A stretch of 64,000 nt of DNA from Chondrosia reniformis (taxonomy: Eukaryota > Porifera > Demospongiae > Chondrillida > Chondrillidae): positions 7,138,001 through 7,202,000 of the forward strand of contig OX359200.1 of assembly GCA_947172415.1 (NCBI GenBank). Reading direction: 5' to 3'. The position numbers and the translations under genes were made by a program. The notes beneath the pieces were generated by a model that did no database searches, was not told the origin of the DNA, and worked only from the letters and a program-made list of their open reading frames with translations. How positions within the stretch are numbered: position 1 is the first letter of the stretch; each line of letters opens with the position of its first letter. Below are positions 1,387-32,081 of the stretch, piece by piece.

Positions 1387-2091
1387 ATCTTCAATGGAGG
1401 GCGTTGTCGACATTTCTGCTTCCCCTCCTTTTCAAGAGGGAGATAGAGTGATAGTGTTTACGAAAGAGGGCAAAGAGACTCACGGAACAACCAAATGGTC
1501 TATTCCAGGACATCTTTATGATCAGAAAGGAACTCTTATTGGAATAGATATGGTATATATGTTCTTAAAGTTGTCAGCACCTTTTAACTGCAAATATTAT
1601 ATACGCATACATACTACAGTTTTAATTCAGTACAGTATGATTTTAGTGCTTATATATTCAGCCATTTTGCTAGACTGACTTACAGTCTCCAATTAATGGA
1701 CAAAATGTGTCCTTATACCAATGTATTAAATACTGCATGTCTATATCCTCGGTTCATATATATAATTTTACAAAAATGACCAATCTTAAAACTGCAACTA
1801 ATAATTTATAACTGCAACTAATAATTTATAACTGCAACTAATAATTTAAAACTGCAACTAATAATTTATACTGCACCTAAGCCTGTGCAAATACTAAGAT
1901 GATAAGTGAAAAAGTTCCAAGGCGATAACTTCAATGGATTGATTTTCCTATTATTTAATGTATTAGGATGATCCTATTGAAAAGGATAATGTTCCTCAGC
2001 ACCTGGAACACTTGGTTCACCACGTTTCTGAAAATGACGACAACCACCTGTTGATAATCCCTCAAGAATATGTTGTGGAAGAAAATTTGCC
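1387..2091 (+). repeat. Segmental duplicate of 5935-6607 (CYLD-type CAP-Gly exon, intron, exon)
   Basis: The sequence from atcttcaatgg to atttgcc is matched, with only scattered differences, by 5935-6607. The match covers the 3' part of one exon, the whole intron and the 5' part of the next exon. Intron and exon are similarly conserved, so the copy is recent or was homogenised. A 20-bp unit (actgcaactaataattta) in the intron is present about four to five times here and about twice in the source. Both breakpoints fall inside exons of the source gene. Confidence 0.9.
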
Positions 2092-4690
2092 TAAGGCTAA
2101 GAAAGGTAATCTAGACGAGAGTATCTACCAGGAGTTTATTAGGAGCATGTCGGAGAAGAAAGAGGAGCAGAAGGACCATCAAGCAGTGAGTAGATCTTGC
2201 TACGTAATTATTCTGACAAGATGGCTCATCTGTCTCAAGCCACAAATTTGGTGCACCTGGAAAACAAAGAAATTTCAGTTTTATTGTCGTATACCTTAGA
2301 GATACAAATACCATGGAATTATGCCAGAACTATTTGTCATTGTCTTTTCAATTTTCTTCATCACTGCAATATTTATTTTATTGTCAGTTTATGCATAGCG
2401 TTGCCATCCCTAATCCCTAATCCCTGATCCCTGATAACAACAGTGTTGTTGTACACTTTATATTTTATTACCTCTCTCATGCACCAGGACCTCAATACCT
2501 CTCATGACGGCAGCATGATGAGGGATCATTATGCTCCTTCAAAGAAAATGGCTGCCACTGATGCAAAACCAGGTATGTTTGACAATAGCCTGTTTTGGTT
2601 GTTATTTACTCACTAGACACAAGTTTTACAATCCAATGAGGTTGATAGATATTTCTGCTCAATCATAAGCACACAATTTACTCTTATGTTTGTAGTTTAC
2701 TGGTTTACTACTTGTATTCCTTCAGCCCCAACTACCTTTAGAGAGGAAACTCCGCCCACCACCAGACAGGAAGCTCCATCCTCTTCCAAACAGGACGTAT
2801 CCCGTCCAGTGATATATGGAGTTGATGTACCATTGGTTAACCCAAAGGAGGCGGAGCGGAGGGAGGAGCCTGGGTGGGAGTGTCCTGCCTGCACTGTGGT
2901 CAACCTTCCCCACAGACCTGGTTGTGAGGTGTGTTATTTGATGAGTACAAGTGCATTATATAGTTTAGTGAAGCAGAGTATGGTTAGCATGAAGTGTGAG
3001 GTGGTTATCAAGATTAATTTGGCAATGTCTTCTATAACTTAGAACGCTGAGGAGGAACAGCAAAGAAAGGAAATGGAGCGAAGGAGGAATTATGAGGCCC
3101 ATAGGAACTTGGATTTTAAGGATTACATTGAGAACACAGCGAACTTCCAGTGTCTTATTTGCTATGAAGATGTAGAAATTGGTGAGGGTGTCATGCTTAG
3201 AGAATGTCTGCATGACTTTTGCAAGTAAGTTTACAACCTTTAATCACATGAGTGACTATATTCTACAATGCTTCAGGATGATAGCAAAGCTCTACTTGAT
3301 GTTAATTATAGGGATTGCCTCAAAGGTCAGATTATGGTATCAGAAGAGGCACAAATAAGGTGTCCATTTGATGATGGACATTATCAATGTCAAACTTTTA
3401 TCACTGAAAGAGAAATGAGAGCTGTAAGTATTGAAGTTACAGACCCGTCATCAGTAATTATATTCATATACACTTACATCATGAGGTACAATGTATGTAT
3501 ATTCTCTGTATTCAATGAGCATGTGAATATCATGTGATTTGACCAGTATACATAGCTGGGTCTGTTATTTCTACTTTTTAGCTTTTGACCGAAGAAGAGT
3601 TTGAGAAGGTTGAAAAACGTGGTCTGCAGCAGGCAGAGGCTGCAATGGTAGATGCTTTCCACTGCAAGACGCCAGATTGTCAGGGATGGTGTGTCTATGA
3701 TGACGATGTCAACTTCTACGACTGCAACTTTTGTAAGAAACAGAACTGTTTAACATGCAAGGCTATCCACGAAGGTATGAACTGCCAAGAGTATCAAGAT
3801 GACCTGGAAAGGAAGGCAGCCAATGATGAAGCAGCAAAGGCAACCAAAGAAATGCTAGAAGTGAGCACCTCCATCAATATTACTGTAGGCAGAGATGAAG
3901 AGAAGATATACACATAACCTGTTGTATGGTATACAATATAAAACACTTGATTACTCAGAAAGGAATAGTTCAATTCCACTCAATACTTAGTTAAATGACC
4001 TTGGTCACTTGGCTGGATTGGTGTAATCACTTCCAGTGATTGTATCCACTGCTTAGGTTGTTAGGAATAGTGTCCTTAGATATGTGTTTGTTAATGTTTG
4101 TTGTGTCTTCTCTGTTTCTCAGAAAATGATTCAGCAGGGAGAAGCCATGAACTGCACTCAATGTGGAGTAATTGTGCAGAAGAAGGAAGGATGTGACTGG
4201 ATCAAGTGTAGTGTGTGCAAGACAGAGCTCTGTTGGGCAACCAAAGGACCAAGATGGGGACCAAAGGTGAAGTGATCTGCACTGCTTTAGGAGTTGGGTT
4301 CTTAGATATTATCACAACACTTGATGGCAGAGAACTGGTGGCCAGTGACTGGTATCCTTCAGATCAAGTCCGCATTACACTTGTGGTTGGGTTATCACTT
4401 GGGGTGTATTAATCAATGGAGTTTTCACTTGTAAAATATTTTTGGTCATTTTCTATCAGCTAAGCTTCTTGTCAACTGCCACCTCATAGTAGTATAATAA
4501 TAGTATGTGGAAAATACTATTGGTAATTGTCAATATTAAATTGTTATAATATTGCACAATCTATATAAGATGTCTATTAATTAGAACTTACGTAACTTCC
4601 TCATTGTAGGGTTGCGGGGATATCAGTGGAGGATGTAAGTGTGGAGTAAAAGGACAAAGGTGTTCTCCACACTGCAGAAACTGTCATTAG
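1394..4690 (+). CDS. RBCK1: HOIL-1/RBCK1-like RBR E3 ubiquitin ligase with CAP-Gly-derived N-terminus
   Basis: Nine exons: 1394-1552, 1967-2185, 2488-2572, 2726-2928 (or -3000), 3043-3224, 3312-3423, 3582-3860, 4123-4266, 4610-4690, giving about 487 or 511 residues. Domains in order are a CYLD-type CAP-Gly segment (exon 1 to early exon 2), a short charged helix-like stretch, an NZF zinc finger ([17 protein letters not shown]), RING1 ([11 protein letters not shown]...[11 protein letters not shown]), IBR ([12 protein letters not shown]...[13 protein letters not shown]) and RING2 with the expected catalytic Cys in KEGCDWIKC. It ends in NCH, like human HOIL-1, whose final His matters for ester-bond ubiquitination. 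In LUBAC, HOIL-1 works with HOIP and normally carries an N-terminal UBL that binds HOIP. That UBL is absent here. The donor at 2929 would remove the fourth NZF Cys. A weaker donor at 3001 keeps it with the same phase. AATAAA lies at 4836. Confidence 0.88.
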
Positions 4691-5037: not shown

Positions 5038-8000
5038 ATGGCTCAGCATCTCTACGAATTGTGCATTCTATTGGATGACCGTCCTTACGAAAGAAACAAG
5101 AAAATCAATGGAGATTTAAATTTAAAAGAGGAAAAGGCTCGTAAAGGCGACCTATTAAAGTATTGCGAAACGAATAATGTAACCTTTGGTGGCGTCTCCT
5201 TCGATGAAGTATTTTATTGTCCAGTTTACGATCCAAATAAGAGAGTGCTCTGCGATAAGGGGCAGATAGCTGGACTCACAAAGGACCAGTTTCAATGGCT
5301 CCTAGCAATTACGCATCCATCTGATCGTTTTGCATTTTATTCCGAGGGCAAATTGGAACAGGTTCTTCAGCTGAACGTGGAGGATCATATCCTGGTCAAT
5401 GTACGGACAGAAAAAAGAAACAGTCGGGCGGATACCTGCTGTTCGGCCGTAGTCAAATACATAGGGCCACTTCTTCCTAATCCTGGACGGTACTTGGGAC
5501 TACAGCTACAAGTAAGTAATCATTGCGCACACACGATTAATATAGTTCTTAGAATTTTGTAAAACTATTGTGTTTGTACGCAAGTTATTGTGTATTGTTT
5601 AACTCAGGAGCGTATCCGTCTTATGACTCATGTAACAGAATAGGGATAACATTAGGGATAAAATATCCCAGAACGAATATGGTTAATACTCAGAACTTCA
5701 GCATCCTATCCCTCTCCACTATGTCTAAGTTTGTTATGTACCGTTCTTTTTGCTGGCTACATAGGAGAAATGGGGTAACTGCAATGGAAAATTTAAAGGA
5801 AAGCGCTTATTTTCCTGTGATCTGGGATACGGCATATTCCTACCAGCCAATCACTTTATTGCTTGTGATGCAAAGCTTCCCACAGCTCCTCAGAAGGGTA
5901 CACAGAACAGCAGTAATGCCTTAATGAAGAAAACATCTTCAATGGAAGGTGTTGTCGACATTTCTGCTTCACCTCCTTTTCAAGAGGGAGATAGAGTGAT
6001 AGTGTTTACGAAAGAGGGCAAAGAGACTCACGGAACAACCAAATGGTCTATTCCAGGACATCTTTATGATCAAAAAGGAACTCTTATTGGAATAGAAATG
6101 GTATATATGTTCTTAAAGTTGTCAGCACCTTTTAACTGCAAATATTATATACGCATACATAGTACTACAGTTTTAATTCAGTACAGTATGATTTAAGTGC
6201 TTATATATTCAGCCATTTTGCTAAACTGACTTACAGTCTCCAATTAAGGGATAACCTTCATGCATATAATGGACAAAATGTGTACTCATAGCAATATATT
6301 AAATACTGCATGTCTATATCCTTGGTTCATATATATAATTTTACAAAAATGACCAATAATTTAAAACTGCAACTAATAATTTAAAACTGCACCTAAGCCT
6401 GTGCAAATACTAAGATGATAAGTGAATAAGTTCCAAGGCAATAACTTTAATGGATTAATTTTTCTATTATTTAATGTATTAGGATGATCCTATTGAAAAG
6501 GATAATGTTCCTCAGCACCTGGAACACTTGGTTCACCACGTTTCTGAAAATGACGACAACCACTTGTTGATAATCCCCCAGGAATATGTTGTGGAAGAAA
6601 ATTTGCCCGTTGATGTGCAATCACTTGATGAAGCACCCTCAAATTCTGAAAAAGGTTCACCAGAAAGGAAGGGCTCACCCAAAAAGTTTTTCTCAAAACT
6701 CTTTAATGGTAACCAGAAGAATTTGGCAGAGAAGAAGGCAAAGGCTGAACAGAAGCAGCATCTGAAGGAGCTGGGAATTACTCCTTTAGAATATCAGGAA
6801 ACGATAAGACTCCAAAAGGAATACGAGGAGAAGAAACTAAAGTCAAAACCCCTCCCCCATCAGGACTGCATTGACCTACCAGTGTATGATGGATCTAAGG
6901 GTTTAGGATCTTCGAGGCAGAGGGTGGGGTCTGATAGTTATCTCTATCATCATACAAGAGAGAAGAGCCCAGTTTCTGAACTGACCAAACAAATATCAGA
7001 ACCAATTCAGCATTTCGCAACTCCAAATGGAACATTTACTCCAGTCAGTTTTGAAGTGGGTATGGAAGTGGAAGCGCGACTGAGGGAGGAACCAGAAATA
7101 CATTATGGTGTCATTCGATGGATAGGAACACTTCCTAGAATAAACAGAAAGATAGCTGGAGTAGAACTTGTAAGTTGTGTCTTTGCCAAATGCCACTTTC
7201 CTTGACAGGCCACGTGTTTGTGTGTATATAGAACTACAAGAAAGATGGCGGAGGTGATGGATCGTGGGATGGTAAAATCTACTTCACCTGTCCTGAAGGG
7301 TATGCCATGTTTGTAGCTCTGGAAAATCTGAGGCCAATTGCAAAGGTACAAGTAGCCAGTGAAAGTGACAGTGATTTTGGTGAGTGGTCACATTCTAGCA
7401 TCATGTATACACCCTCTGTAATTGCATGGGACACGGTTGCTTTAACAGGACTGAAATTTATGTAGGTTACTTCCAAGGTATCCATATTGCTGATTTAAAA
7501 TTTCCTAATTTGTTGTCTAATGATCTCATTGTATTTCCTTAAGCCTGACTAGAAGCTTACAAAATTAAACTAAATTATAAAGATATTCATAAGATGACGA
7601 TGATAGACATAAATGAGATGTTCTTTATTTAGAACAGATGAGGTCTTGTTTAATTAGAATGAATAAAATGCTCTTTTTCTAGATCCGAACAAGAAGGTAT
7701 TGCAAAAGGAAGTAAAGGACCTGAAACAGTCTCTGGTACGAGCGGAGACTATTAGTCACAGCCTTAAAAAGGATAACGACTCACTGAAGGAAGAAGTAAC
7801 AGAATTGAAACAAAAGCTGGATGAGATAGAGCAGGCCTGGACCATACAGCCGGCAAGCTTAAATGTCACAGGAAGAGAGCTTGGCAGAGGTGCGTGGGGA
7901 GAAGTGAAGATTGGAGTGTACTGTGGAGGTCGTGTAGCCGTAAAGAGGATGCACCAGATAATTGTTTCAGAATACAATATTCAACTCTTTAAACGAGAAA

Positions 8001-8593
8001 TGGATATAGTGGCCCGTCTCCGTCACCCTCACCTGGTCCTCTTCATAGGAGCAGTCACTACTGGTACACTGACCATAGTGACAGAGCTGATGGAGACCAG
8101 TCTACGTAAGCAGCTTGAATTACGTAGAATATCCGAGAAGCACATTCTCCCAATCAGTAGAGATGTAGCCTGTGCTCTGAACTACCTTCACTCTCTTCCT
8201 GAGCCCATCATCCATCGAGATGTCAGCAGTGCCAATGTCCTACTCAACTCAAAGCCTGGAGGAAGATGGATGGCCAAATTAGGAGATTTTGGATCAGCCA
8301 ATTTGTTAAGCAAGCTTGGAACAGTAGCTCCAGGTTGTGTCGCCTATGCTGCCCCGGAATGCCAGACCCCTGCTCTACAAGGTCCCAAGATGGATGTCTA
8401 CAGCTATGGAGTGTTGCTGTTTGAAATGTTCACAGGACACATGCCTGAATTAGGTCAGCTTGAGAATATCCGAGAGAGAGTACCATTTGGGTTCTGTCCT
8501 GATGGTACAGTACTAGCAGTCGAGTGTACTCATCAGGAAATGGAACAGCGTCCAGCAGTGACTGAAGTGTTGGAGAGATTAAATGACTTGTAA
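5038..8593 (+). CDS. CYLD-like triple CAP-Gly protein fused to a TKL-type protein kinase
   Basis: Five exons: 5038-5511, 5765-6100, 6483-7169, 7232-7379, 7683-8593, giving 851 residues. Residues 1-548 match the N-terminal half of CYLD: three CAP-Gly-like domains (around residues 120-190, 225-310 and 455-540) separated by a charged linker. Instead of a USP domain the last exon encodes a coiled coil (about 550-600) and a complete kinase domain. Kinase motifs are GRGAWGEV (616-623), the ATP-binding Lys636 in VAVK, Glu654 in the C-helix, HRDVSSANVLL (726-736), DFG (750-752) and APE (772-774), so it should be active. Exons 1 and 2 have exactly the same lengths (474 and 336 bp) and phases as those of the CYLD gene at 17598, showing common origin. 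The kinase exon is intronless and joins at a phase-1 intron. CAP-Gly domains may target microtubules or ubiquitin-pathway partners (inference). Confidence 0.9.
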
Positions 8594-8856: not shown

Positions 8857-9625
<769 letters not shown>

Positions 9626-17597: not shown

Positions 17598-20500
17598 ATG
17601 GCGTCTGCAAGTCATTACTATATTCTACTCCAAGATAAGCCATTTGAAAGTAAATCGGTGCTCTCTACCATTGGTAACTTAATTTCCAAGTCAGCACCTG
17701 GCTATGCTCTAAAAGGCTCTCTACTCATATTTGCTGGAAGATCAACTTCTAGCACAGGAGCAGACGTATACCACTTAGCTAATGATCCGAACAAGAGAAT
17801 AGAGTGTGTATCACACGAGGTGGGTTATCTCAGAGAGGACGAATATGAATTTCTCTTACCTATAAAGGAAACAAGGGAATGTTTCAAGCTTTATAATCAA
17901 AAGGATAAGTTCAAAAGTACCACTACTCTGGCCTTTAAAGATCGTGTGTGGGTTTCTCTTCCTGAGGAGCCTCGTCAAGGTATTTGTCAGACTTCATGTT
18001 GCAGTGGTATTGTGAAATATATCGGTCCAATACCTGAAAACCAAGGAAACTACTTTGGACTGGAATTGCAGGTACTCTTTTGTGGATATTACAGTTGCCT
18101 GAATGTTTAAAAATATTTTTTGGGGCGCCATAGACGCTCCTATATTGTTTTCAGACATTATGTTAACGTATGGCTTCCTGTTCGTAACCTTGTATCTATC
18201 AAAAATGGCGGACATTCGGTTAGCTTTTGTTTTCTAGCTTAAAATTAGCTTTCTCTTCCTTAGCGTAGAACATTAAACGAATGAAATGGATTTTAAAACC
18301 AACCTTACTAACCTAAAGCTTGCACAAAAACGTTTTCTGCAAGATATGGTCTTGAAATTGACGGCAATCAAGCAACGACCAGAGTCGGTTAAGAACCAGC
18401 AGGTTTTTTTAACTCGAAATACTTGTTATTTTTCCTATTGTACAAAATTTTACTACAAACAGATTTTTTAGGATGGTTATCTTAATTGAGTATCCAAAGT
18501 TGTAGTTTGTATGTATCTTTCTTGCTGGTTGAACCAGAAAAAAATCCCTCTATTAGTTACCAAAAATTATTGTGAGTGAGAAAGCAATTTTGTATAATAA
18601 TGGGTCCAATAATATGAATTACGTTTTGTGAATTTGAACTTGGTGTACGTACATGGTTTAGAATGTTGTCAGAATGAATCCTTTGCAACTGATCCCAGAT
18701 TTTGATTTGGAACAGTTCTATAAAGTCATTTATGGGACCACTGCACTCTGCACTCAAATAACTCCAAGCAGTAATCTGTAGACCAAAATCAACATTCAGT
18801 TGTGAGAATAAATACAGTGAAACCTGTATATTAAGACCACTCGTGAGACTGACTAGGTGATCTTATTAGTGTTGTAGGGTTAAAAATGGCTATAGTATAA
18901 AAATTGAGTTAGCGTTTGTTAGATTACTTACGTAACTGGGAGAATAACATGGCTCGACCCAATACAGGAATATATAATTGATCATATGCACCAAAACCAT
19001 TTCCATGTAAAGAAGTTTGTTGATGCTGTTGTTTGCTGTTGTCAGTCAGTTCTTTTTGTTTCTCCATTTTAAGTTGGACTTTATATTTGAATAAAATTTG
19101 AAGAATACTTGTAAACTGTTATGAATTGTGTTTTGTGACTTTATGTTTAGGCTCCAGTTGGTACTTGTGATGGTACTATCAGGGGTGTACGCTTCTTTAG
19201 TTGTGAAGATCTGTATGGTATATACCTACCAGCTAACCACATCATATCTAAATCTGGTACATCACAAGTACCTTCAGTGTCAGTGCTTGTCAATCCTCAG
19301 AAGAAGGAGAAGAAGAAAGGAAAATTACTTGTTTCTTCTGACAAGTCATCTTCTGGTCGAGAGTTCAGAGAAGGAGATAGAGTTACAGTATTTGATTCAA
19401 ATGACAAGCAGTGTGTTGGTACAGTAAAGTGGGCTTTACCTGGGAAAGAGAATGGTCTTGATGGTTACATCATTGGAATAGAACTGGTAAGAAAAATTGC
19501 TCTTACAATTGCCTTGTTTATCATGCTTCTTTTCCTCTTAAAAGGATGATCCTGTAAAGAAGGAGAAATTTCCTGACAATGTCCCAAAAATGGGAAGTTA
19601 TTTCACAAAGCCAAATTATAAAAAGCATACTTACTTGGCTATGCCTGAAGCTTTTGTAAGTAAAAAAAGTGAGATAGAGAAGCCTGAGGGCTGGATAGAT
19701 ATTAATGAAGATTACTACAAGAACGAGGGTATCCAGCCTACTAAATCGGTTCTTTTGGCAATATCTGAAGTTGCCAAGGATGAACACACAACTGTAGATG
19801 CCCTTGTAAATGAGAGTGAAGCTGCAAGAAAGAAAATTGAGGACAACATGCACAAACAGGTTCTAATCAATGCTGGAGTGCCTCCTGAAGAGCTAAAAGG
19901 GCAAGAAAGCCGAATGGAACATTATGAAATCGAAAAGAAAAAACAACTAGAAAGAAGACATGAAGAGGAAAGAAACAAGAAAGATTATCATCAAGTATCT
20001 AAGGCAAAGGGTTCCAAATCTGATCACCTAGATAACCAACCTCAATTCCGCAATCAGAATTCTTATGATGAACTTCAAAACAGGGATATTTCTGGATTGG
20101 GAAGGCAAAATTCAATGGAACATAAAGAGCCAGCTAGTGGACCCTATCATCCTGGAGAAGGAGCTAGTGGACCCTATCATCCTGGAGAAGGAGCTGGTGA
20201 CCCACAATCAAAGGCTGTACTTAGACAACAGACAGGCTATCCTCCAGGGACCCAGGATGGCTTTGACTCAAAGAATCACTTGGAGATTGGGTCTAGAGTT
20301 GAGGTCTGCACTCCAGATGGGGTAAATTATGGTACTATAAGATGGATAGGGACTTTTCCTGATGTGAAGCAGAAGATAGCTGGAGTGGAACTAGTAAGTT
20401 ACTTTATTGCATCCAGTGTAAATATTCACATCTCATTATATCTATATAGGATGACCAGATAGAAGGTGCTGGTGATGGTTCATGGAATGGAGTTGAATAC

Positions 20501-23153
20501 TTTTACTGTCCTAAAGGACATGCCATGTTTGTAGCTCTTGATAAACTCAGACCTGATGAGAGATTCTCACAGAAAGTACATGGAGATAATCGTAAGTGTA
20601 GTTTCTTCATATGTAATTGTGTATGTCTAAAGAATACCTTCTAATATACTTACCTATTTCTGTAGCTGTTGATAAAGCTGTAGGTAACAAACAAAGAGTG
20701 GTCCAGTCTGCTCCAGCTCCTGATGCAGAAAAGAAAGTAAACAAGTTCATTGGAACTCTTAAAGGTATTCAAGGCAACCAGAACTCGTGTTACCTGGATG
20801 CTACATTGTTTGGAATGTTTGCACTGAACAACTACTTTGATCAAATGTTACTCGAGGAAGTTCAGGATGAATATGGAAGGGAAGTACAAGATATCATATC
20901 AACCAAGATTATATATCCGCTGAGACAGTGAGTGTACCTGATATTGTGTGCTATATACTACCTGCTACCAGATAGACATTGCCAACTACATACGAATGTA
21001 TGAATATAATTAAGATTTTGCCAGAGTCAATTGGTTTACCAGCTCCCTTATCAATATATTTATATTTCACTTGCTATAGAAACACTGTAGTGTCCTATGA
21101 TCCTGTGATGGAGTTGAGAAGAGCTCTTGACAAGTTAGGAAAAGTGAAAGGAATAACACATGCAGAACAAGGTTTGTGATCTACCTTGATCATGTAGAAC
21201 AAGTGAAGACTATAGACTCTATAACAAGAAATAGGTAGATTCCTTGAGTACTTACTATGTGATAATCAATACCATTTTCCTGACCATGAGAATGTAAATT
21301 AGCTATATAGAATATGGATATGTTGGTATAGGGCTATTCAAGATACTTGCAGTATAGGTATACGTAGCTTAGAGGTTAATTTGCTAACTTCACTTAATTT
21401 CAGATCCTGAGGAGTTTCTGAATCTTTTATTTAAACATGCTTTGAGAATCAAGCCATTTCTGAGATTACAGTAAGTAAGATCCTTAACTACTACTATAAG
21501 TCAAGATATTGAACATACATGCAGTATGTAAATCATAAACTTCATAAGTCAAGAACATAGTACATACTTACATGTAGTTAGTAAACTATAGAATACTTCT
21601 GTGTCCTGGGCCATTGCTCTTCAATTAATTGCAAGGCAGTTGAGCAATGAATGCTATAACATTTTCTTCTGTTCATCCTTTCAGTCGTCGCTCTGGAGAA
21701 GATACTGAGTTCTTCCTTCAACTGTTTGTTGAGCCAAGTGAGAAGAAGATATGGACGGTCAAAGAAATGTTAACTCAGTCACTGAAAGGCCAAGGAATCA
21801 GTTTTATAAAGGTGCATTTTATTATACATGCAGAACTATCATTAAATCATCTCTTGAAATAAATTTCAGATAATGTGCTTTCTTATATTTTGTAGAAGAA
21901 CCTGACATGATAATTATCTTTTTCTTTTGATATTTTGATATATGATATTTTATTAAAGGTTTATTTTCCTTTATTCCTCATTAATTGTCATTTCTACTTT
22001 CCTTTTTATTCCTCAGCCTCCCCTCAAGTTGATTATTCAGCTACCAAGATATGGGAAAGACTTTAAAGTCTTTGAGAGGATCTTTCCAGAAATTGACTTA
22101 GATATATCAGAGCTCTGTAGGGGCTATGGTAAGACTGTATTACACTTTGTAAAAGCTGAAAATTTAGCAAATATCATATATATTTTTTACTTTTGTATAG
22201 CACCACTTGTCCCGGATGATGCTACATGTGTCATTTGTGGTGAACACAGTCCAAATCATTCTTGTTCTGATTGTGGAAGTAGAGATAATCCTGTATTCAA
22301 ACAACAAGAAGTCATGTACTTCTGTGAAGACTGCTCCAAAAGAGTGCACCATCATGAGAAGCGGTTCAACCATCGTGTTAAGCCTTTAGTGTACACACCT
22401 GCTGACAACCCTGTCTGCAAGATGCAGTTGATGTCAGTCATTTGTATTGAGAAGAGTCACTATGTCTGCTTCACTCGCTTTGAAAAGAGGTGGTTCTTCT
22501 TTGATAGCATGGCCGACAGAACTGGTTAGTAGAGGTTGAGTGTGTACCTGCATGTGTTATATTAAATAGCAGTTCTACCTCTAATTAGACTATATATATA
22601 TGTTACATACGTATATACGTATGTCCTTATAGACACTGAGTTCAACATTCCTGAAGTCACAGAGTGTCCGGAGATTGGACGTGCTCTGGATAACATTGAT
22701 GAGACAAGAAAGAAGGATCCCTCAACTCTTCATCCTCTTGTGAGGAGACTAGTGAAAGATGCCTCCATCTGTGTCTATGTTGATCCTGAGGGGGACATGT
22801 ATGGAGAGCAAGATGATAGTTTCAATCATGGTACTGATCCTTCTCCTGGTCGTGGTACTGATCCTGCTCCTGGTCATGGTCGTGATCCTGCTCCTGGTCG
22901 TGGTCGTGATCCTGCTCCTGCTCCTGGTCGTGGTCGTGATCCTGCTCCTGCTCCTGGTCGTGGTCGTGATCCTGCTCCTGCTCCTGGCCGTGGTCGTGAT
23001 CCTGCTCCTGATCATGGTCGTGATCCTGCTCCTGCTCCTGGCCGTGGTCGTGATCCTGCCCCTGGTCATGGTCGTGATCCTGCTCCTGCTCCTGGCCATG
23101 GTCGTGATCCTGCTCCTGGTCATGGTCATGATTTTCTTGGTAGTCAAGTGTGA
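17598..23153 (+). CDS. CYLD: CYLD-type deubiquitinase: three CAP-Gly domains + USP
   Basis: Eleven exons: 17598-18071, 19151-19486, 19545-20393, 20450-20591, 20666-20927, 21080-21171, 21404-21470, 21685-21811, 22017-22128, 22201-22524, 22633-23153, giving 1101 residues (human CYLD 956). Three CAP-Gly domains occupy roughly residues 120-190, 225-310 and 520-595. The third has GTIRWIGTFP...GVEL and DGSWNGVEYFYCP. The USP domain starts near 630 with Cys642 in NQNSCYLDATLFGMF, His907 in EKSHYVCFTRF and Asp922 in FFDSMADRTG, so the triad is intact. The inserted B-box-like zinc module is present (CVICG, CSDCG, CEDC). CYLD removes K63- and M1-linked ubiquitin and restrains NF-kB signalling. Odd points are a Glu/Lys-rich helical linker with a tandem SGPYHPGEGA repeat and a long repetitive (DPAPGRGR)n tail past the USP. 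Exons 1-4 share exon phases with the gene at 5038, and exons 1-2 also its exon lengths. Confidence 0.95.
18121..18450. repeat. Diverged interspersed element in CYLD intron 1
   Basis: It begins ggggcgccatagacgctcc, contains aaaaatggcggacatt, and ends ttaactcgaaatacttgtt, matching features of the 15070-15480 element. No open reading frame or clear terminal inverted repeat was seen. A short pogo-like end (cagtgaaacctgtat) lies at about 18818 in the same intron without a matching partner. Confidence 0.45.
22826..23133 (+). repeat. Coding minisatellite: Asp-Pro-Ala-Pro-Gly-Arg-Gly repeat tail of CYLD
   Basis: Units of 24-30 bp (cctgctcctggtcgtggtcgtgat) repeat about eleven times in frame at the very 3' end of CYLD. 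They encode runs such as DPAPAPGRGR. The unit length is a multiple of three, so all six frames stay open, which creates long but meaningless antisense frames. The tail is absent from vertebrate CYLD and probably varies in copy number. Confidence 0.85.
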
Positions 23154-24797
23154 AAAAGTTGTAGACATCATTCACTTACATAGTTTAGAACACTAATGCA
23201 CAACCTAACATTAAAACTGCTCTTGCATAAAATTTGTTAACTTACTGAAAGACATGTAGCTGATATTGTATTTTAAGTTGTAGCTTGTTTTAAATTGTAA
23301 TTGGTATTAGTGTCATTGCATATATGTATATATGTTGTCAGAGCTCCCAAGATTAGGTTTGAGACCATCTAACATATAACACCACGCAGGTGTGTGAAGT
23401 TAGCATGTACAATACAAAGTTTTTGATAAATAATCGAAGAAGCAACCTGGATCATTAAACAAAGCGAAGCTGGTCTTCAGTTTTCCAATAATCCTAGTCT
23501 GATTGGAAATTAAAGCGCCTTAATGAGTAATATTGGCTTGCTGTTTGGCATAAGCATTGCCATGTTCATTAATATTGGCGACCTGTTGCCTCCTTCAATT
23601 TTTTCTTCCTCAGTTGTTGAATTTTAAAATTTTAATGATCTCACGTGAATGTACATTACAAAGTATAACTGGGATGCCTACCCTATAGCTAAAAAGTTTG
23701 TAGACCATTTAGACATGCATGACCTCTTGAAAATTAAGTTTTGAGGAGTGCATGCGATATATATTGTAACTTGCACTGTATATATATATATATAAAGTAA
23801 ATAAAAAACATTTACAAAAATGATGTTAGAAGTAGGAATGGTAGTGTTCACTAATACATCTGCAAAAAGTATCGAAACAAGACACTGATTATATGATAAG
23901 GCTAATCATACGGAAGTTGCATATATACTGAAATTTAAGTAAATTAACCATACACTTCTGTGTTTGGGCGCACTAACCTTAAGTAGGAATGGTGTGCCCA
24001 AACACAGAAGTGTATGGTTAATTTACTTAAATTTCAGTATATATGCAACTTCCGTATGATTAGCCTTATCATATAATCAGTGTCTTGTTTCGATACTTTT
24101 TGCAGGTGTATTAGTGAACACTACCATTCCTACTTCTAACATCATTTTTGTAAATGTTTTTTATTTACTTGTATTCCCCCTTTTTTCCTCTTAATATTAC
24201 TAGTTTTAAATTGATTTGAAAGTTTTCTTGGCGAAGATCTCAAAATAACGTCTTAGACAAGAGAAATATGCCGAAAACCATGATCTCTTAATTAAAAAAT
24301 GGCGTCCGAGAAGACCACAATTTTCGCTCTTCACAATTAACATGCTTATGGAAACTAATTGAGGAAACCACCATGCAATTGCAAGATTTTTGATCATTTG
24401 TCCTCCTTTTCACGCCCTTATTCAACCAAAATCATCCTCATTTCCACCTCTTAGCAAGCTTACAAAAAACTATATGCCTTATCGACTGTGTTCTGCCGCG
24501 GTGATTGCGCAATGAAAGGGTCTGATTTCATCGGACTAATACACCACCACTCCCATGACTTTACTTATATAAACTAAATCTGGTTGACTGATTTCAGTTG
24601 CATGTCATTATTATTATAGCAGCAGTCATGGAGTGAGTTTGCATCATATTTGTATATATTCTCCAATTTTTGTAGGAACGGTATTCCCCACTTCATCTAG
24701 CTATAGCCAATGTCGTAAATTAAATGGCCGTTCGAGTTGTGTCCGTACAAGGTATAATTGTGGATCCTCCAATCAGTGTACACTAAACTTTCCCGAG
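23154..24797. other. Intergenic region CYLD to PIG-U
   Basis: No coding exon was recognised. The region holds the 376-bp palindrome at 23795-24170, an AT-rich flank with a TA tract at 23778-23792, and the PIG-U promoter in the last few hundred bases. Confidence 0.5.
23795..24170. mobile_element. Near-perfect 376-bp palindrome (foldback element)
   Basis: Two arms of about 174 bp (from aagtaaataaaaaacattta inwards) are almost exactly complementary and are separated by a short spacer around 23969-23996, which itself contains a partial repeat of aagtaggaatggt from the arm. No coding capacity. It is most likely a recently inserted foldback MITE. If transcribed it would make a long perfect hairpin RNA, a possible small-RNA source. 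Confidence 0.9.
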
Positions 24798-26352
24798 ATG
24801 ACAGAACAGTTCCGCGTGTTTAGTTTTCCGTATATTGCAACAATCGCAACAGCTCTACGCGTAATCTTCTTTGCACTAGGTGCTACGGAAAGATTGGAAA
24901 AGAGAATTGAACTGTCTACCGCTGTAAACCAGTGGTCCAGACGTGAGTAGTTAGGTGAACCATAGATATTATAATATTATAATGGATGAACAGAAGATAT
25001 GGTAGCAATAGTATAAGGTATTCCTTGGCTAATTATATGTTTGCTGGCAAACAATAATAATAATGCGTTCCAGTGATTGTATTGCTTATCATCGCAGCCT
25101 GGCCAAGTGCAATTAATTCCCTTACTTCATTAATATTATAATAATATATTGGTTGCCTGTGATGATATATTGGTTGCCTGTGATGATATATTGTATAAAG
25201 GATGTATTGATTTGCTGTATTATATCTGCTAGTAAGAGAAGGTGTGCATCTATTGGAGAATGGCTATTCCCCTTATGATGGAGATATATGTCACGAGGTA
25301 CTGCTCAGCTGTAATATATATTACGTAATCTCTCCTCCACTAAATGACATGCAATTCTCATACCTCCAGCCCCCTCTGGTTTTGTATTACTTCAAACTGG
25401 TCCTCTCTTTTGGACAGTGGTCAGTATATGTTCATTATATAGTAAGTGAAGTCTAGTATATGTACATTATATAGTAAGTGAAGTTTAGTATATATACATT
25501 ATATAGTAAGTGAAGTTTAGTATATGTTCACTATATAGTATGTGAAGTTTAGTATATGTACATTATATAGTAAGTGAAGTCTAGAATATATACGTTATAT
25601 AGTAAGTGAAGTTTAGTATATATACATTATATATGTTCATAGTATGTGAAGTGAATAATTATATTATGATGGATGGCAGAGTACCAGATGATGTAGTAGT
25701 TACCTCTCTAATGTACTATTTTATTAAATCTTTATATCCATGGGTTACTGTTTTGATGTCAACCTCTCAATGCTGTAGATGGTAGATTTATTGATAGCCT
25801 ATTCAATATGGAGGTTTGTGGATTGTCTACACAGAAATATGGTGAGCATGTGCTACATAAGAGAACAAAGATGACGTGCAAGTTGACATACTAATCCTGC
25901 TTGTTAGTATGGTTGCAATGTTGTGAAGGCGTTATTGTATATCAAATGAAGTGTACTCATGATGGTGACATATAGAGTGGATTTAGGGGATTTCCCCATA
26001 GCTGTCCCACCTCCTGATTGGCTGCAGGTTATATCACAGGCTGAGGAAAGAGCACATTATGGAAAGGGGAGTGACCAGATATTGATCAAACTGGACAAGA
26101 GGCTACCAGACATTACAGCTGCACTGTAAGTGCACAATAATGTACATACCCCAGAATTAAGAGAGATTACAATAAACATGTCCATGGTTCTCCTTCCATC
26201 AGGTATCTCTTGAATCCTCTGACCATCCTCACTACTTGCAGTCTCTCCACAGTCCACCTCAACACGTTGTTTATAGCACTTTTCCTCTCCTCCAGTGGAC
26301 AAGGTGAGCACCCAGTACGGATGGATAGGGCAAATGATATGTTTATATCCTG

Positions 26353-26398
<46 letters not shown>

Positions 26399-28513
26399 TG
26401 TGTGTGGGTGTGTGGGTAACTTCCTGTATGCTCTTCATGGATTACTTCCTGTGCACATAGGTAACTTCCTGTACATTCTGTAGGTAACTTCCTGTGTGCC
26501 TCCCTGTTCCTGGCAGTCTCGAGCTACCTCTCATTCTATCCGGCAATGCTGCTGGTTCCACTAGTAGTATTGGCATTTCAGGTATGTGCCACACCTTAAA
26601 TTACAGGCCACACCCCTTTATATGTCACGCCCACTTTTACCTGCCACACCTCTTCTTCTCATAGGATACTCTTGCATCATTACTTAAAGTACTGTTCGGA
26701 TTTACTGTTTCCATATTTGGACTGCTGGCTATATCGTACCTCATTACGGGATCAGTTGAGTATATGAGTGCCACCTACGAGACAATGTGAGACTTTAGTA
26801 TGTGTGTGGGGGTGGGAGTGGGGGTGGGAGTATGAAGCATTGAATGGATACTCATATGATGTACATATACAACCTGCAGCTGTCATATGTCATATGTGCT
26901 AGTGTCATGTTTCGGTTTTGCTTCCAGTTTGCTAGCTTCAGATTTGACACCGAACTTTGGACTGTTCTGGTACTTTTTCACTGAAATGTTTGACCACTTT
27001 AGAAGTCTCTTCCTAAGTGTGTTACAGATCAATGCTTTCATCATGGCTATACCTCTCACCATCAGATTGTAGTGAGTCACTGTTGAATGAAGTGTATGTA
27101 TATTATCTATACCAAGGATTCACAGAAGATCAAGATAAAGAAAAGACAAAGACTCCCAGGATCACTGATGAAGGGTGAAATTCCCAGAAACGGCTGTCTG
27201 ACCCATTGGAGAAGAAGATGAAAGAAGGGAAAGAAGGAAGAAAAGACTCCTGTATCCTCATCCAAAAGCTCTCTTCAGGTTTAGTTCCCCTATAGGCTCT
27301 TTTACAGAATAGGCATATAGCATGTAGGAAAATGGTATCTTAGATTTTTCATATATTTTCTATACAGACATTTATTCATTCACTAACTCATGAATATCTT
27401 TAAGCTCATCAACTTAAGTTTAATATAGTCTTCCTTCTGTAGTGAAAAGCCATTGTTTGTCTGTTACCTGTTGGTGTCGCTGATATCTATTTACAAGTCC
27501 TATCCGTGTCTGGGGGATGTCCTTCTGCCAATAGCACTGCTACCGCTCTGGGGTCACCTGTACAGAAGTGAGTGGGTGGAACCAGTTGGAACCAAACTGG
27601 TTCACATGAAGTCTTTATCATTTCATGTGTTTTGAAATAGATAAACTTTTGAACAGTTTCCTTCCATTCTGATTGGCCAGTTGGGCTACCTAAAAGGCTC
27701 CAGTTTTTCAAACATTAATTAAAATGCCATTTTTATCTTGTTAGTTACATTCAGTCCTCTTTCACATACATTACCTCATTATGGCTCTTAATTCCATCTA
27801 CATTAAGTGGGCGTGGCTAATCTGTGGTTTCCTCCCACCTTCCACTAGATATGAGGTTTACACTTGCTGTGCTGGTGATGTTTGTGATTGCCATTATTAT
27901 TGGACCTGTATTCTACCATCTCTGGACCTCCACTGGCAGTATCAACTCAAACTTCTTCTTTGCCATGACATTAGTGTATTCACTATCCCAGGTAGGTCTG
28001 GCTGTGGGAGACTGGTAGATGTAGATACAGTGTGGTCTGGCTGTGGGAGACTGGTAGATGTAGATACAGTGTGGTCTGGCTGTGGGAGACTGGTAGATGT
28101 AGATACAGTGTGGTCTGGCTGTGGGAGACAGGTAGATGTAGATACAGTGTGGTCTGGCTGTGGGAGACTGGTAGATGTAGATACAGTGTGGTCTGGCTGT
28201 GGGAGACTGGTAGATGTAGATACAGTGTGGTCTGGCTGTGGGAGACTGGTAGATGTAGATATAGTGTGGTCTGGCTGTGGGAGACTGGTAGATGTATGTA
28301 TAAAGATACAATATGGTCTATGCAGTTGTTGGAAGATAATTTTACTATGTGCCCTCTCAATATTAAAATTGTTGGATTTACAAATTTATCTTTTCACAGA
28401 TATTTCTTGTCAGTGACTTGATCCATTCAGAACTGGTGTATCAGTACGATTTGAAGCACGGTTGGCCTAGAGCAGATAAAGAGGGGAACCACATTAAACT
28501 AAAACTCACTTAA
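24798..28513 (+). CDS. PIGU: PIG-U, GPI transamidase complex subunit
   Basis: Twelve exons: 24798-24942, 25233-25297, 25370-25441, 25779-25841, 26028-26125, 26203-26303, 26484-26581, 26665-26786, 26928-27071, 27443-27567, 27849-27991, 28400-28513, giving 429 residues (human 435). Recognisable stretches are ENGYSPYDGDICHE after the first helix, YLLNPLTILTTCS, LASDLTPNFGLFWYFFTEMF (hallmark of PIG-U), YEKPLFVCYLLVSLISIYKSYP and GSINSNFFFAMTLVYS. It is a polytopic ER membrane protein that helps the transamidase attach preassembled GPI anchors to proteins. All splice sites are GT-AG with consistent phases. Exon 3 ends inside a 32-bp tandem repeat that also copies its 5' splice site. The last intron starts with a 39-bp minisatellite. 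A dispersed repeat lies in intron 9. Confidence 0.95.
25428..25660 (+). repeat. 32-bp minisatellite spanning the PIG-U exon 3 / intron 3 donor
   Basis: The unit includes the last codons of exon 3 plus the donor (ttatataGTAAGTgaag). GTAAGT or GTATGT recurs at 25442, 25474, 25506, 25538, 25570 and 25602, exactly 32 bp apart. Only the first keeps the reading frame, because 32 is not a multiple of three. Confidence 0.9.
26351..26416. repeat. (TG)n microsatellite
   Basis: An almost pure TG dinucleotide tract, followed by a threefold echo of gtaacttcctgt up to the next PIG-U exon at 26484. The echo resembles the start of that exon (GTAACTTCCTGTGTG), so part of the acceptor region has been duplicated. 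Confidence 0.9.
27110..27365 (-). repeat. Dispersed repeat family A, minus-oriented copy in PIG-U intron 9
   Basis: It carries agaagatcaagataaag, gactcccaggatcactgatgaagggtg and agaataggcatatagcatgtaggaaaat. The same sequence in inverse orientation makes up 58345-58610. Partial copies are at 47065-47165, 56730-56870, 60535-60670 and 62150-62215. It is non-coding and probably a SINE or MITE family. Exact ends were not determined. Confidence 0.8.
27993..28300 (+). repeat. 39-bp minisatellite at PIG-U last intron donor
   Basis: About eight copies of a 39-bp unit beginning gtctggctgtgggagactgg start three to four bases after the donor at 27992. As 39 is a multiple of three, all frames remain open and give repetitive non-genuine frames on both strands. 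Confidence 0.92.
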
Positions 28514-28998
28514 TTAGTTTCTTTCCAGCTCATTTCACATTTGATGAATCTATAATAAACTAGTTGTAATACTTTGCAATGTTTAATTTGCCACCACATA
28601 CGTACTATGCATGGAGACAGTCTTAATCGAACCATCACATGAAACTTTCATTGATCAAGTGTAGCACATTAAAAACTTGCAGCTTTATGAAAAGATTTAC
28701 AAGTCACTGCATGCATCCTATATACTCTTGTGCCCAAGAGCTTTGAATAGATCTACGTAGATTCTATACATATAAGAACAATGTATTATCTTTATAATAG
28801 CAGTAAAATAATAGCAAATTTAAATGACACAACCATGATAAAATAAACTGATTATGAGTTTGACAACTTAAATTGTACAGAACACAAATAGCAAATACAA
28901 ATTATATACAGTGCATGATATGATGGAAACATCTAAATTAATTAACAGCTAGAAAATAAAAGTACCATTGCTCTAAATCTAATGCTACCAGTACAAGG
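28514..28998. other. Tail-to-tail spacer PIG-U / TMEM143
   Basis: AT-rich, with AATAAA-like signals on both strands. No coding exon or structural motif was recognised. Confidence 0.6.
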
Positions 28999-30672
28999 TT
29001 ACACCCATGAAATTGGTCTCTCCTCTGAAACTGTTTCATCAGGAGGTTCCGCATCCATGGCCTGACTGTCCCTCACCAGCGACACTCCACTCCAGGACAG
29101 AAGGGGACGGGGAAGAATCTTTAGCGCCTCAGACATTGCCAGAGCCACCATTCTTCCATCAGCCTGAACCTGACAAAGACCAGCCTCCTCCAAGCTCCTG
29201 ATTGCATCTCTGTGATCCAAGTGGATGTCTACTCCAAAGGACCTCTTAAGCCAGTCCTCCACAGTTGTCTTCAGTGTCTCTTCTGTGTGATACTGCGGTG
29301 GACCCTCTGTATGTGTGGTGCCTGGGACACCAGTTCGATTGGGAGCCGCTAGCAGGAAGGTGTAGGCCAGGAGCATCTCTTTAAACTCTTCGTCTTGAGC
29401 TCGATCTGATAACAAAGTCAGTACCCCACGATTGTGAGCTATGGACTTGTAAAAGAGAAATTGTGAGAGGTTGGCTAGGTAGAGATTACGTTTGGCAGAG
29501 TATCGCAGCCAAGTGTGGAAACAGAACAGACCCAACAGTGCCATCACAGCCACTGAATAATGAAGGTTTACATAAGCCACCGTAGCTAGCATCTTTACAC
29601 TAGCACTGAGTGTCAGCAAGCCAGCAGAGGCAAAGATGAGTGTGTTGTCTTGCCGGGACATTTTTATCTTTCCTCCAGGAAGAAGGTGCTCCAGCTGGTT
29701 ACAAGGGACATCCTTGAATATTTTGAGTGCCAGTTTAGTGCTTCCCTTTCTCCTGAGGGCAATCATCACTCTTGTGAAACTTGCAGAGTTAGAACCCTTA
29801 GATTTGAGACCAACACGGTTTCTTATTCTGTCCAGAAGTCTTTTCGAGGCAATGGATCCTCTTCCTCTTGTCCACAGTCTAAGAATGTCATACTGCTTGG
29901 CATCTACATCCACCCTCACCCCTTCAGTGGTGTCGTGTTCTCGGACAACGTCAAGGAACTCGCTGGCAGGAAGAGGAAGGTAGTTGGCCAGAGTCACAAT
30001 CTCTTCAATCTTTTTCAAGAGCCAATATTCATTATCAAACAGCTGCTGTCTGGAGAGACTGTGCGTCTTGACTGTGTCCTTGTCTGGATCCAGGTGGTCG
30101 TAGAGGGACTACAGGAAGTGGCCACCAAACATTACATAATAATGAATCTACAGATACTTGAACAGAGCTATTCACTAAACTTGAATACTACTAGAGATCT
30201 CTTTACCAATCAGTTGATTTTAGGTCTAAACAAGTTACTTTAGATATGGTGAAATAGCCTCTGCCTAAGAGGTTTTCAAGTTATTAAATCAAAGGATTAT
30301 GATTCTTACTTTCATTTCGTCCAAGTGCTTGTAGAACTTTTGGTAAATGTACGCATCCACCGTCGCCGCAAACTCCGGAAATATGGCGGATTCATCTCTC
30401 GTGAGGAGCTTGTTGTCTTCCAGTATCTTACGTACTAAGGCACGACGAGTGATGGGAATGTAGCGATCACTGCTACTCAGCTGCGTGGAAGCTATGTCGG
30501 CAGCGGTTGTTGATTGCCTCAGCGTAGGCGGGTCTGGAGACTCGGTCTGTCTCGACGCAACAGAAACTACTTTTCGGATAAACAGTAAAGTGGCGACATT
30601 CCTTTGTCGAGGAATGACGGAACATATTCTTCCAGCGACCATCTTGTTATAGGGTATTCCCCGGACAGCCAT
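28999..30672 (-). CDS. TMEM143: TMEM143-like mitochondrial membrane protein (DUF3754)
   Basis: Two exons on the minus strand, 30672-30310 and 30108-28999, giving 490 residues (human TMEM143 459). The start at 30672 was chosen because it begins a basic, Arg-rich presequence-like stretch (MAVRGIPYNKMVAGR) suited to mitochondrial import. An in-frame upstream Met at 30741 would overlap the divergent gene. The DUF3754 signature appears as FKDVPCNQLEHLLPGGKIKM followed by two hydrophobic helices (LIFASAGLLTLSASVKMLATV and VAVMALLGLFCFHTWL). The N-terminal part (ERYIPITRR-like, FAATVDAYIYQKFYKHLD) and the C-terminal AGLCQVQADGRM fit the family. Molecular function is unknown, and human TMEM143 is reported as mitochondrial. 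Confidence 0.9.
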
Positions 30673-30710
30673 CTTAATCTTCTTTCTAGTGTACCTTGGC
30701 AACAGAAAAT
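30673..30710. promoter_or_regulatory. 38-bp bidirectional start region TMEM143 / DYNLRB1
   Basis: Only 38 bases separate the two divergent start codons. Core promoter elements must therefore lie inside the transcribed regions or the first exon or intron of the partner. No TATA box is visible, which fits housekeeping bidirectional promoters. Confidence 0.65.
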
Positions 30711-31707: not shown

Positions 31708-32081
31708 ACCTGACTGTGTAGTAATCTTTGGAACTTGATATTCTTCAGATTATCATGTCATATGTATACTTGTACTATTTATGTTATATTTCAGTCAGTG
31801 CAGTCATATAACAGTGATCTACCAGTTATAATACTGAAGTATAGCATACACATACTAATACATTGCATGCCGTTTATAATTGGACGAAGCACCTGTGCAA
31901 ATACTATGATGAAAAAGTGAATAGCATATTGCATGTGTTGGCATGGACATGGATGTTGTAAGAGTTTAAAGAAAAATAAAAAAGTTCTAAATTACACCTA
32001 ATCTCTCCCATGATCCATTCACAAAAGACTTGTATATTCCCTTTCCCAGTAGTTTGATGTATTATGAGCAAAGTTCAAAGT
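31708..32081. other. Spacer between DYNLRB1 and Asp-box gene 1
   Basis: Tail-to-tail spacer. AATAAA-type signals are at about 31975. No exon was seen. Confidence 0.5.

What the first reader, a model, noticed from the sequence alone, without database searches (positions are those of the whole stretch)
5038..8593. CYLD scaffold with its deubiquitinase domain replaced by an active-looking kinase
Seen: three CYLD-type CAP-Gly domains, then coiled coil and a kinase with all catalytic motifs. The first two exons have the same lengths (474, 336 bp) as the CYLD gene 9 kb downstream, and intron phases after exons 1-4 agree (0,0,0,1). The two genes diverge exactly at the phase-1 intron 4, where CYLD goes on to the USP exons and this gene to a single intronless kinase exon. 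Known: CYLD CAP-Gly domains recruit signalling partners. Inference: tandem duplication followed by exon replacement made a kinase that can reach CYLD's binding partners. I do not know of this architecture being described.
Basis: partly seen in the sequence, partly recalled or inferred. Interest (0 to 1): 0.95.

Follow-up and report, generated by a model that had tools for sequence, protein, structure and literature searches.

The report
CYLD scaffolds fused to kinases
In this sponge-like genome, genes related to the ubiquitin-cutting enzyme CYLD have been joined more than once to one kind of protein kinase, in two copies keeping both enzymes in one predicted protein, a combination for which my literature searches found no description.

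Summary
Window 5038-8593 (KIN) is a five-exon gene model (852 codons with stop) with three CAP-Gly domains, a helical linker and a TKL-type kinase. Exon lengths (474, 336) and intron phases (0,0,0,1) match the CYLD gene at 17598-23153. The kinase exon has no in-frame ATG before its G-loop.

KIN is not alone. About 163 kb of this chromosome hold eight CYLD-type genes; seven carry a kinase exon of one family. Two of the seven keep the ubiquitin-protease exons (one without the B-box stretch) and then splice, over a 78- or 83-bp intron, into the kinase exon: predicted deubiquitinase-kinases of 1216 and 1246 residues. So one "replacement of the protease" is too simple. A terminal kinase exon, usually phase 1, was joined to CYLD scaffolds at least twice (topology tests). 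Close kinase exons also lie downstream of an AIG1-type GTPase, a SAM domain and an unnamed domain. About 275 bp of catalytic core look homogenised between loci, as by gene conversion.

Missing: transcripts, kinase activity, other sponges. T7258 is frameshifted, A4 unclear; a known ubiquitin-contact residue is not conserved. Assembly size fits Chondrosia reniformis.

The parts
5038..5511 (+). KIN exon 1: CYLD-type N-terminus with the first part of CAP-Gly 1 (474 bp, phase 0)
   Evidence: tblastn with CYLD exon 1, E 1.6e-20
5765..6100 (+). KIN exon 2: end of CAP-Gly 1, start of CAP-Gly 2 (336 bp, phase 0)
6483..7169 (+). KIN exon 3: end of CAP-Gly 2, linker, start of CAP-Gly 3 (687 bp, phase 0)
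7232..7379 (+). KIN exon 4: end of CAP-Gly 3 (148 bp), phase-1 donor GTGAGT
   Evidence: PDB CYLD CAP-Gly3 1ixd E 5e-12
7380..7682 (+). Intron 4 (303 bp), phase 1, joins scaffold to kinase; no USP remnant at E<=1
7683..8593 (+). KIN exon 5: one terminal exon coding about 50 helical residues and a TKL kinase; no in-frame ATG before the G-loop
8010..8295 (+). Catalytic-core tract, approximate ends, homogenised with kinase exons elsewhere on C12 and on C14 (KIN against nine others: core dS 0.04-0.17; flank dS about 1 or more, or saturated)
17598..23153 (+). CYLD gene with USP exons, 11 exons, 1102 codons with stop; no kinase remnant at E<=1 in 23154-33000
1394..4687 (+). Neighbouring chimera: KIN-derived CAP-Gly 2 segment fused to HOIL-1L/RBCK1-like zinc finger and RBR part (exon ends judged by eye)

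Best explanation
KIN is one member of a gene family in which a single terminal exon, coding a coiled-coil helix and a TKL kinase and usually starting with a phase-1 acceptor, is spliced onto CYLD-type CAP-Gly scaffolds. In two paralogues (A2, A3) the exon follows the CYLD ubiquitin protease (A2 without the B-box stretch), predicting deubiquitinase-kinase proteins; in KIN and others the protease exons are absent and the kinase exon is joined at or near CYLD intron 4. Shown by sequence: open gene models, homology of both halves, repeated pairing, conflicting histories of the halves, homogenised catalytic core. Inferred: that these exons are spliced together in vivo; that the helix oligomerises the protein, the CAP-Gly half docks it where CYLD acts (microtubules, NEMO-like or ubiquitin-ligase complexes), and proximity lets the kinase activate in trans, as RAF- and RIPK-type kinases do (recalled); and that in A2/A3 the kinase could phosphorylate the CYLD linker in cis, a job done by separate IKK-type kinases in mammals.
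For: Intact five-exon model with a matching phase-1 junction. 12 kinase loci (13 rows) at 55-100% identity to the query; the other rows are 29-41% identical (130 of 287 first-look candidates scored). 7 of the 12 lie behind CYLD-type exons. A2: 12 exons, 1216 aa; A3: 11 exons, 1246 aa; no internal stops; kinase over the Pfam cut-off in both, CAP_GLY 2 stretches in A2 and 1 in A3. USP against PDB: A2 E 2.6e-69 to 2e-68; A3 2vhf CYLD E 1.2e-72, 3wxe/f/g 1e-64 to 4e-64, Cys and His boxes in both. Introns before the kinase exon 78 and 83 bp, leaving little room for a separate promoter and UTRs. No in-frame Met before the G-loop in KIN; first Met 120-130 residues into the ORF in A2/A3. Phase-1 acceptors: KIN, A2, A3, A5, K6738, and by eye T7258, K6711, K6734, C14. 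Selection: kinase flanks dN/dS 0.31-0.34 for KIN against A1-A3, 0.19-0.47 within lineages; USP exons dN 0.05-0.08, dS 0.13-0.21. Human CYLD is tuned by phosphorylation of its linkers and its CAP-Gly 2 and 3 bind ubiquitin (PMC8511506, passages).
Against: No transcript seen: every splice is inferred. Best A1 junction is phase 0; A4 has no clear exon 4; T7258 has a frameshift in its kinase. Kinase ORFs of A1, A4 and A5 do have in-frame Mets before the G-loop (first at 42, 2 and 98), so the no-Met argument is for KIN alone. N-half dN/dS among A1-A5 is 0.44-0.74, weak constraint. HRDVSSAN lacks the Ser/Thr-type Lys, so activity and specificity are not assured. The Leu475-type ubiquitin contact is absent. 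KIN CAP-Gly 1 matches dynactin (E 1.5e-5), not CYLD, best in the PDB. Pfam UCH passes for A3 but not for A2 or the window CYLD (995 aa given) at E<=0.1.
Confidence: 0.77

Rival explanations
1. The kinase exons are separate genes that lie next to CYLD-type genes; the apparent fusion is proximity.
For: No transcript data. A2/A3 DUB frames stop one codon past the donor if the intron is retained, and the window CYLD ends after its own last exon. A1, A4 and A5 kinase ORFs have in-frame Mets before the G-loop.
Against: KIN exon 5 has no in-frame Met before the G-loop; A2/A3 have only 78 and 83 bp between DUB and kinase exons; donor and acceptor are phase 1 in 5 of 7 cluster genes (T7258 by eye), A1 can join in frame, A4 is unclear; the pairing occurs at seven loci.
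Confidence: 0.1
2. One duplication of CYLD followed by one replacement of the USP exons by a kinase exon, later amplified.
For: KIN, A5 and T7258 all join at CYLD intron 4, phase 1; N-halves A1-A5 group together, 93/93, not starred.
Against: A2 and A3 have USP and kinase together. AU tests reject one clade for the cluster kinases (p 0.0103) and for A1-A5 kinases (p 0.0058), and reject N-half clades that would match the kinase groups. Limits: groups were chosen after the quick trees; long branches (C5, KIN, T7258) were flagged; gene conversion may distort the N-half tree, while the converted core was removed from the kinase tree.
Confidence: 0.15
3. The CAP-Gly-kinase genes are decaying by-products of a recombining cluster, without a conserved role.
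For: T7258 frameshift, A4 gap, missing stretches in A2, A3 and A5, N-half dN/dS 0.44-0.74, chimeric HOIL neighbour.
Against: KIN, A2, A3 and A5 are open over 852-1247 codons; kinase-flank dN/dS is 0.31-0.34 between KIN and A1-A3.
Confidence: 0.15

Closest known systems
CYLD (CAP-Gly-containing USP deubiquitinase; human; Amphimedon AqCYLD in a figure legend of PMC5796713)
   Same: Three CAP-Gly domains in KIN; KIN shares exon lengths and phases with the CYLD gene of its own window; A2/A3 keep the USP with Cys and His boxes
   Different: Terminal coiled-coil-kinase exon; KIN has no USP. The legend in PMC5796713 (passages) names RING, CAP-Gly and DUB domains, no kinase
TKL kinases (RAF, CTR1, TNNI3K)
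   Same: Best PDB relatives by sequence among the 60 shown of 2283: CTR1 3ppz E 5.5e-27, B-raf 6xfp 4.3e-24, c-Raf 1.6e-23, TNNI3K 3.3e-22
   Different: HRDVSSAN instead of HRDLKxxN (recalled signature); different N-terminal architecture
RIPK/IRAK-type adaptor kinases (recalled)
   Same: Inferred working principle only: adaptor module plus TKL kinase activated by proximity
   Different: No death domain or CARD among the Pfam hits of KIN; CAP-Gly scaffold instead
CYLD regulation by IKK-type kinases in mammals (PMC8511506, passages)
   Same: A kinase acts on CYLD linkers; in A2/A3 a kinase lies in cis
   Different: In mammals the kinase is a separate protein

Membership tests
CYLD deubiquitinase | Three CAP-Gly domains in KIN, of CYLD type | tested here: met
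   Pfam three stretches; CAP-Gly3 best PDB hits are CYLD 1ixd, 7owd, 7owc; exons homologous to the window CYLD. CAP-Gly1 alone matches dynactin best in the PDB
CYLD deubiquitinase | USP catalytic domain in KIN | tested here: not met
   No USP exon in the model; no remnant in intron 4 at E<=1; USP matches at E<=0.001 genome-wide only in window CYLD, A2 and A3
CYLD deubiquitinase | USP domain with Cys and His boxes in A2 and A3 | tested here: met
   A2 lacks the B-box stretch; Pfam UCH passes only for A3
CYLD deubiquitinase | Shared gene structure (exon lengths, phases) for KIN | tested here: met
   exons 1 and 2 the same length, first four phases the same; exons 3 and 4 differ in length
CYLD deubiquitinase | Leu475-type ubiquitin contact of CAP-Gly3 | tested here: not met
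   Arg at this place in the window CYLD (7owd alignment; numbering aa 467-552 from PMC8511506, mapping mine); gap, or Glu if aligned without gap, in KIN
Eukaryotic protein kinase, TKL group | Kinase domain above Pfam cut-off | tested here: met
   PF07714 115.2 bits against cut-off 23.1
Eukaryotic protein kinase, TKL group | Catalytic residues: G-loop, VAVK Lys, HRD Asp and Asn, DFG Asp | tested here: met
   HRDVSSAN in 12 of 12 sequences; DFG in 10 of 12, DLG in K6734 and K6738
Eukaryotic protein kinase, TKL group | Ser/Thr signature HRDLKxxN (recalled) | tested here: not met
   HRDVSSAN in 12 of 12
Eukaryotic protein kinase, TKL group | Phosphotransfer activity | not testable with these tools
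   needs expression and assay
RIPK/IRAK adaptor kinases | Death domain or CARD beside the kinase | tested here: not met
   no such Pfam hit in KIN at E<=1
RIPK/IRAK adaptor kinases | RHIM motif | not tested
   not searched separately

The most novel reading that the evidence does not exclude
A mobile terminal exon coding a coiled-coil-TKL-kinase module with a phase-1 acceptor has been captured repeatedly in this sponge by ubiquitin and immune-type scaffolds (CYLD with and without its protease, an AIG1/GIMAP-type GTPase, a SAM-domain gene, an unnamed-domain gene); the copies keep exchanging their catalytic core by gene conversion while their scaffolds diverge, and two copies are true one-chain deubiquitinase-kinases in which intron retention would switch the kinase off.
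Probability: 0.5. Interest if true: 0.88.

Novelty: new variant of a known kind. Interest (0 to 1): 0.82.

Why it matters
CYLD trims ubiquitin chains in inflammatory signalling and is controlled in mammals by kinases acting from outside. A natural protein with the deubiquitinase and a kinase in one chain, and siblings that keep only the scaffold and the kinase, would let the link between phosphorylation and chain trimming be tested in a built-in fusion. The cluster also shows exon shuffling with intermediates side by side, and a catalytic core shared, apparently by gene conversion, between different scaffolds in an early-branching animal.

Tried and rejected
Rejected: stand-alone kinase gene for KIN (no in-frame Met before the G-loop) and for A2/A3 (78 and 83 bp introns). 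Looked for and not found: USP remnant in KIN intron 4, or kinase remnant in 23154-33000 after the window CYLD (none at E<=1). Rejected as support: CAP-Gly3 as a ubiquitin reader through Leu475. Led nowhere: AlphaFold of the kinase exon alone (mean pLDDT 37.8; only the helix is usable), so no fold search was made; Pfam scan of six stretches, four upstream of K6734, C5 and K6711 and two of the upstream HOIL N-terminus (0 hits at E<=0.1). Paper searches: searches returned 0 papers; one search returned 2 and one search returned 1, not opened; one search returned 2, of which I read passages; one search had 59, 15 listed, none opened; one search had 3, none opened; one search had 9, passages of 2 read; one search had 8, passages of 1 read. 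No sponge other than this assembly could be searched. C12 7202001-7250000 was covered by searches but not read. I made no scan of viral contigs or genome contigs.

Full report
OBSERVATION. Its five exons (window 5038-5511, 5765-6100, 6483-7169, 7232-7379, 7683-8593) use GT-AG borders, have out-phases 0,0,0,1 and give 852 codons including the stop, with no internal stop. Pfam finds three CAP-Gly stretches and a kinase. The CYLD gene 9 kb downstream (17598-23153) has 11 exons and 1102 codons including the stop; its first two exon lengths and first four phases are the same: 474, 336; 0,0,0,1. The N-halves (exons 1 and 2) are 39% identical over 255 codons, dN 0.65, dS 2.07, an old divergence.

SOURCE. 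The window is C12:7138001-7202000 of an assembly of 117,379,552 bases in 15 contigs. This fits Chondrosia reniformis, 117.37 Mb in 14 chromosomes plus a mitochondrial genome (PMC12181767, abstract and passages). The name is my inference from size and contig number.

A FAMILY. Searching the whole genome with the kinase exon, 130 of 287 first-look candidates were scored and matched; 12 loci reach 55-100% identity (one of them in two pieces), and all others are 29-41% identical. Seven of the 12 lie behind CYLD-type exons: A1 to A5 in a tandem array at C12 7095424-7124033, KIN, and T7258 on the minus strand (7254721-7258347). With the window CYLD this makes eight CYLD-type genes in about 163 kb. 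The other five are K6711, K6734 and K6738 on C12, one on C14 and one on C5.

DUB-KINASE FUSIONS. A2 (12 exons, 1216 aa) and A3 (11 exons, 1246 aa) contain CAP-Gly exons (Pfam: 2 stretches in A2, 1 in A3), USP exons and then the kinase exon, with no internal stop. Their USP parts match CYLD 2vhf and 3wxe/f/g in the PDB: A2 E 2.6e-69 to 2e-68, A3 E 1.2e-72 for 2vhf and 1e-64 to 4e-64 for the others, with Cys and His boxes present; the 3wx entries carry no name in the table. A2 lacks the B-box stretch. Pfam UCH passes its cut-off only for A3 (E 3e-7), not for A2 or the window CYLD (995 aa given). USP matches at E<=0.001 occur in the genome only in these three genes (20 rows). The introns before the kinase exon are 78 and 83 bp, with a phase-1 donor G|GTTAGT and a phase-1 acceptor TAG|TAACTCTGG. 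If that intron is retained the DUB frame stops one codon later, so a kinase-less isoform is possible (inference).

JUNCTIONS. KIN, A2, A3 and A5 join phase 1 to phase 1, and T7258 does so when read by eye from the DNA. A1 fits best as phase 0 to phase 0. A4 has no clear exon 4. In-frame Mets before the G-loop: none in KIN; first at 130 in A2, 120 in A3, 42 in A1, 2 in A4, 98 in A5 (position in the stop-to-stop frame). K6738 follows an AIG1-family GTPase frame (E 1.4e-15) with a phase-1 donor and acceptor. K6711 lies downstream of a SAM domain (E 2.9e-6); K6734 and C14 lie downstream of a domain 33% identical to the one in the same open frame as the C5 kinase. The acceptors of K6711, K6734 and C14 are phase 1 read by eye. 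Apart from C5, where it is one frame, these upstream links are not full gene models.

DIFFERENT HISTORIES. In the kinase tree without the core, A4 and A5 group with C5 (100/98) apart from the other eight; holding A1-A5 together is rejected (AU p 0.0058), and also A1-A5 plus KIN (p 0.0103). In the N-half tree A2 groups with A4 (100/100); holding A4+A5 (p 6.7e-5) or A1+A2+A3 (p 2.0e-4) together is rejected, and A1-A5 form one side of a branch (93/93, not starred). The program flagged long branches for C5, KIN and T7258, and I chose the groups after the quick trees. I conclude that halves were joined or exchanged at least twice.

CORE HOMOGENISATION. Over 89-90 codons of the catalytic core, about window 8010-8295, ten kinases on C12 and C14 have pairwise dS 0.00-0.17, while flank dS between the four lineages is 1.0 or more or saturated; C5 stands apart (core dS 0.72-0.86). 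Four-fold sites, 12 pairs tested: KIN against A5 43 of 44 in the core and 14 of 39 in the flanks, p 2.8e-10; KIN against C14 36 of 40 and 21 of 46, p 1.2e-5; KIN against C5 21 of 34 and 16 of 43, p 0.04; A5 against C5 p 0.17. Gene conversion is the simplest cause. Core similarity must therefore not be used to date the fusions.

SELECTION. Kinase flanks: A1-A3 dN 0.017-0.024, dS 0.083-0.093; KIN against A1-A3 dN 0.34-0.35, dS 1.0-1.09; within lineages dN/dS is 0.19-0.47. USP exons 5-9: dN 0.05-0.08, dS 0.13-0.21. N-halves of A1-A5 are looser, dN/dS 0.44-0.74.

MECHANISM. The best PDB relatives of the kinase are CTR1 and RAF (60 of 2283 shown), so I call it TKL. All 12 sequences have HRDVSSAN; K6734 and K6738 have DLG for DFG. 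The first 50 residues of the exon model as one helix; the kinase model is unusable. In mammals CYLD CAP-Gly 1 and 2 contact microtubules, CAP-Gly 3 contacts NEMO, CAP-Gly 2 and 3 bind ubiquitin, and phosphorylation in the linkers tunes K63 cleavage (PMC8511506, passages). I infer a scaffold kinase activated by clustering at CYLD-type sites, and in A2/A3 a DUB regulated in cis. Against a ubiquitin-guided version: the CAP-Gly3 Leu475 contact is Arg in the sponge CYLD and not Leu in KIN.

NEIGHBOUR CHIMERA. The window gene at 1394-4687 joins a copy of KIN exons 2-3 (window 1387-2091 against 5935-6607, 730 columns with 82 gaps, 85.9% identity) to a HOIL-1L-like RBR gene (PDB 8eaz E 1.2e-98; that this entry is HOIL-1L is recalled). 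Its sister copy at C12 7131-7134 kb matches it from 2093 on at 94.9-96.3%. The joined protein was read by eye.

LITERATURE. Searches listed no report of a CAP-Gly-kinase or CYLD-kinase protein by title or abstract start; only the held open-access library was searched and few papers were opened. PMC5796713 (passages) describes an Amphimedon CYLD scheme with RING, CAP-Gly and DUB domains and no kinase; PMC5978004 (passages) and PMC13376213 (passages) add background only.

VERDICT. The finding is confirmed and larger than reported. The best history is repeated joining of a kinase exon to CYLD scaffolds, with deubiquitinase-kinase gene models still present. Transcript evidence is the missing piece.

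Noticed in passing
window 1394-4687: HOIL-1L/RBCK1-like gene whose N-terminal part is replaced by a CAP-Gly 2 segment copied from KIN; a possible donor GAG|GTGTGT would cost the last zinc-finger Cys. A sister copy at C12 7131-7134 kb shows no match to the CAP-Gly segment.
   Followed up: partly
L051-L054 (C12 7094862, 7101654, 7108135, 7114320, 7120268): Each array gene A1-A5 is preceded by an almost identical transmembrane exon (97-100% identity to the first), so the tandem unit seems to be a receptor gene plus a CYLD/kinase gene.
   Followed up: partly
L060, C12 6737126-6739445: AIG1/GIMAP-type GTPase frame followed by the same coiled-coil-kinase exon with matching phase-1 splice sites.
   Followed up: partly
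L062 (C5 1169879-1171873), L059, L061: An unnamed domain without Pfam match lies in the same open frame as the C5 kinase and also upstream of the K6734 and C14 kinases.
   Followed up: partly
L056, C12 about 7254985: Frameshift in the activation loop of the T7258 kinase; the gene may be a pseudogene.
   Followed up: partly
L053/L054, C12 7117654-7120020: The A4 kinase exon carries a long run of near-identical 14-residue coiled-coil repeats (LTANLTEMTEEKQR) before the kinase.
   Followed up: no
window 22830-23140: Repeats of Asp-Pro-Ala-Pro-Gly-Arg/His type at the C-terminus of the window CYLD, shorter in A2 and A3.
   Followed up: no
window 8857-9183, minus strand: Open frame that looks like histone H4 (by eye) between KIN and the next genes.
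   Followed up: no
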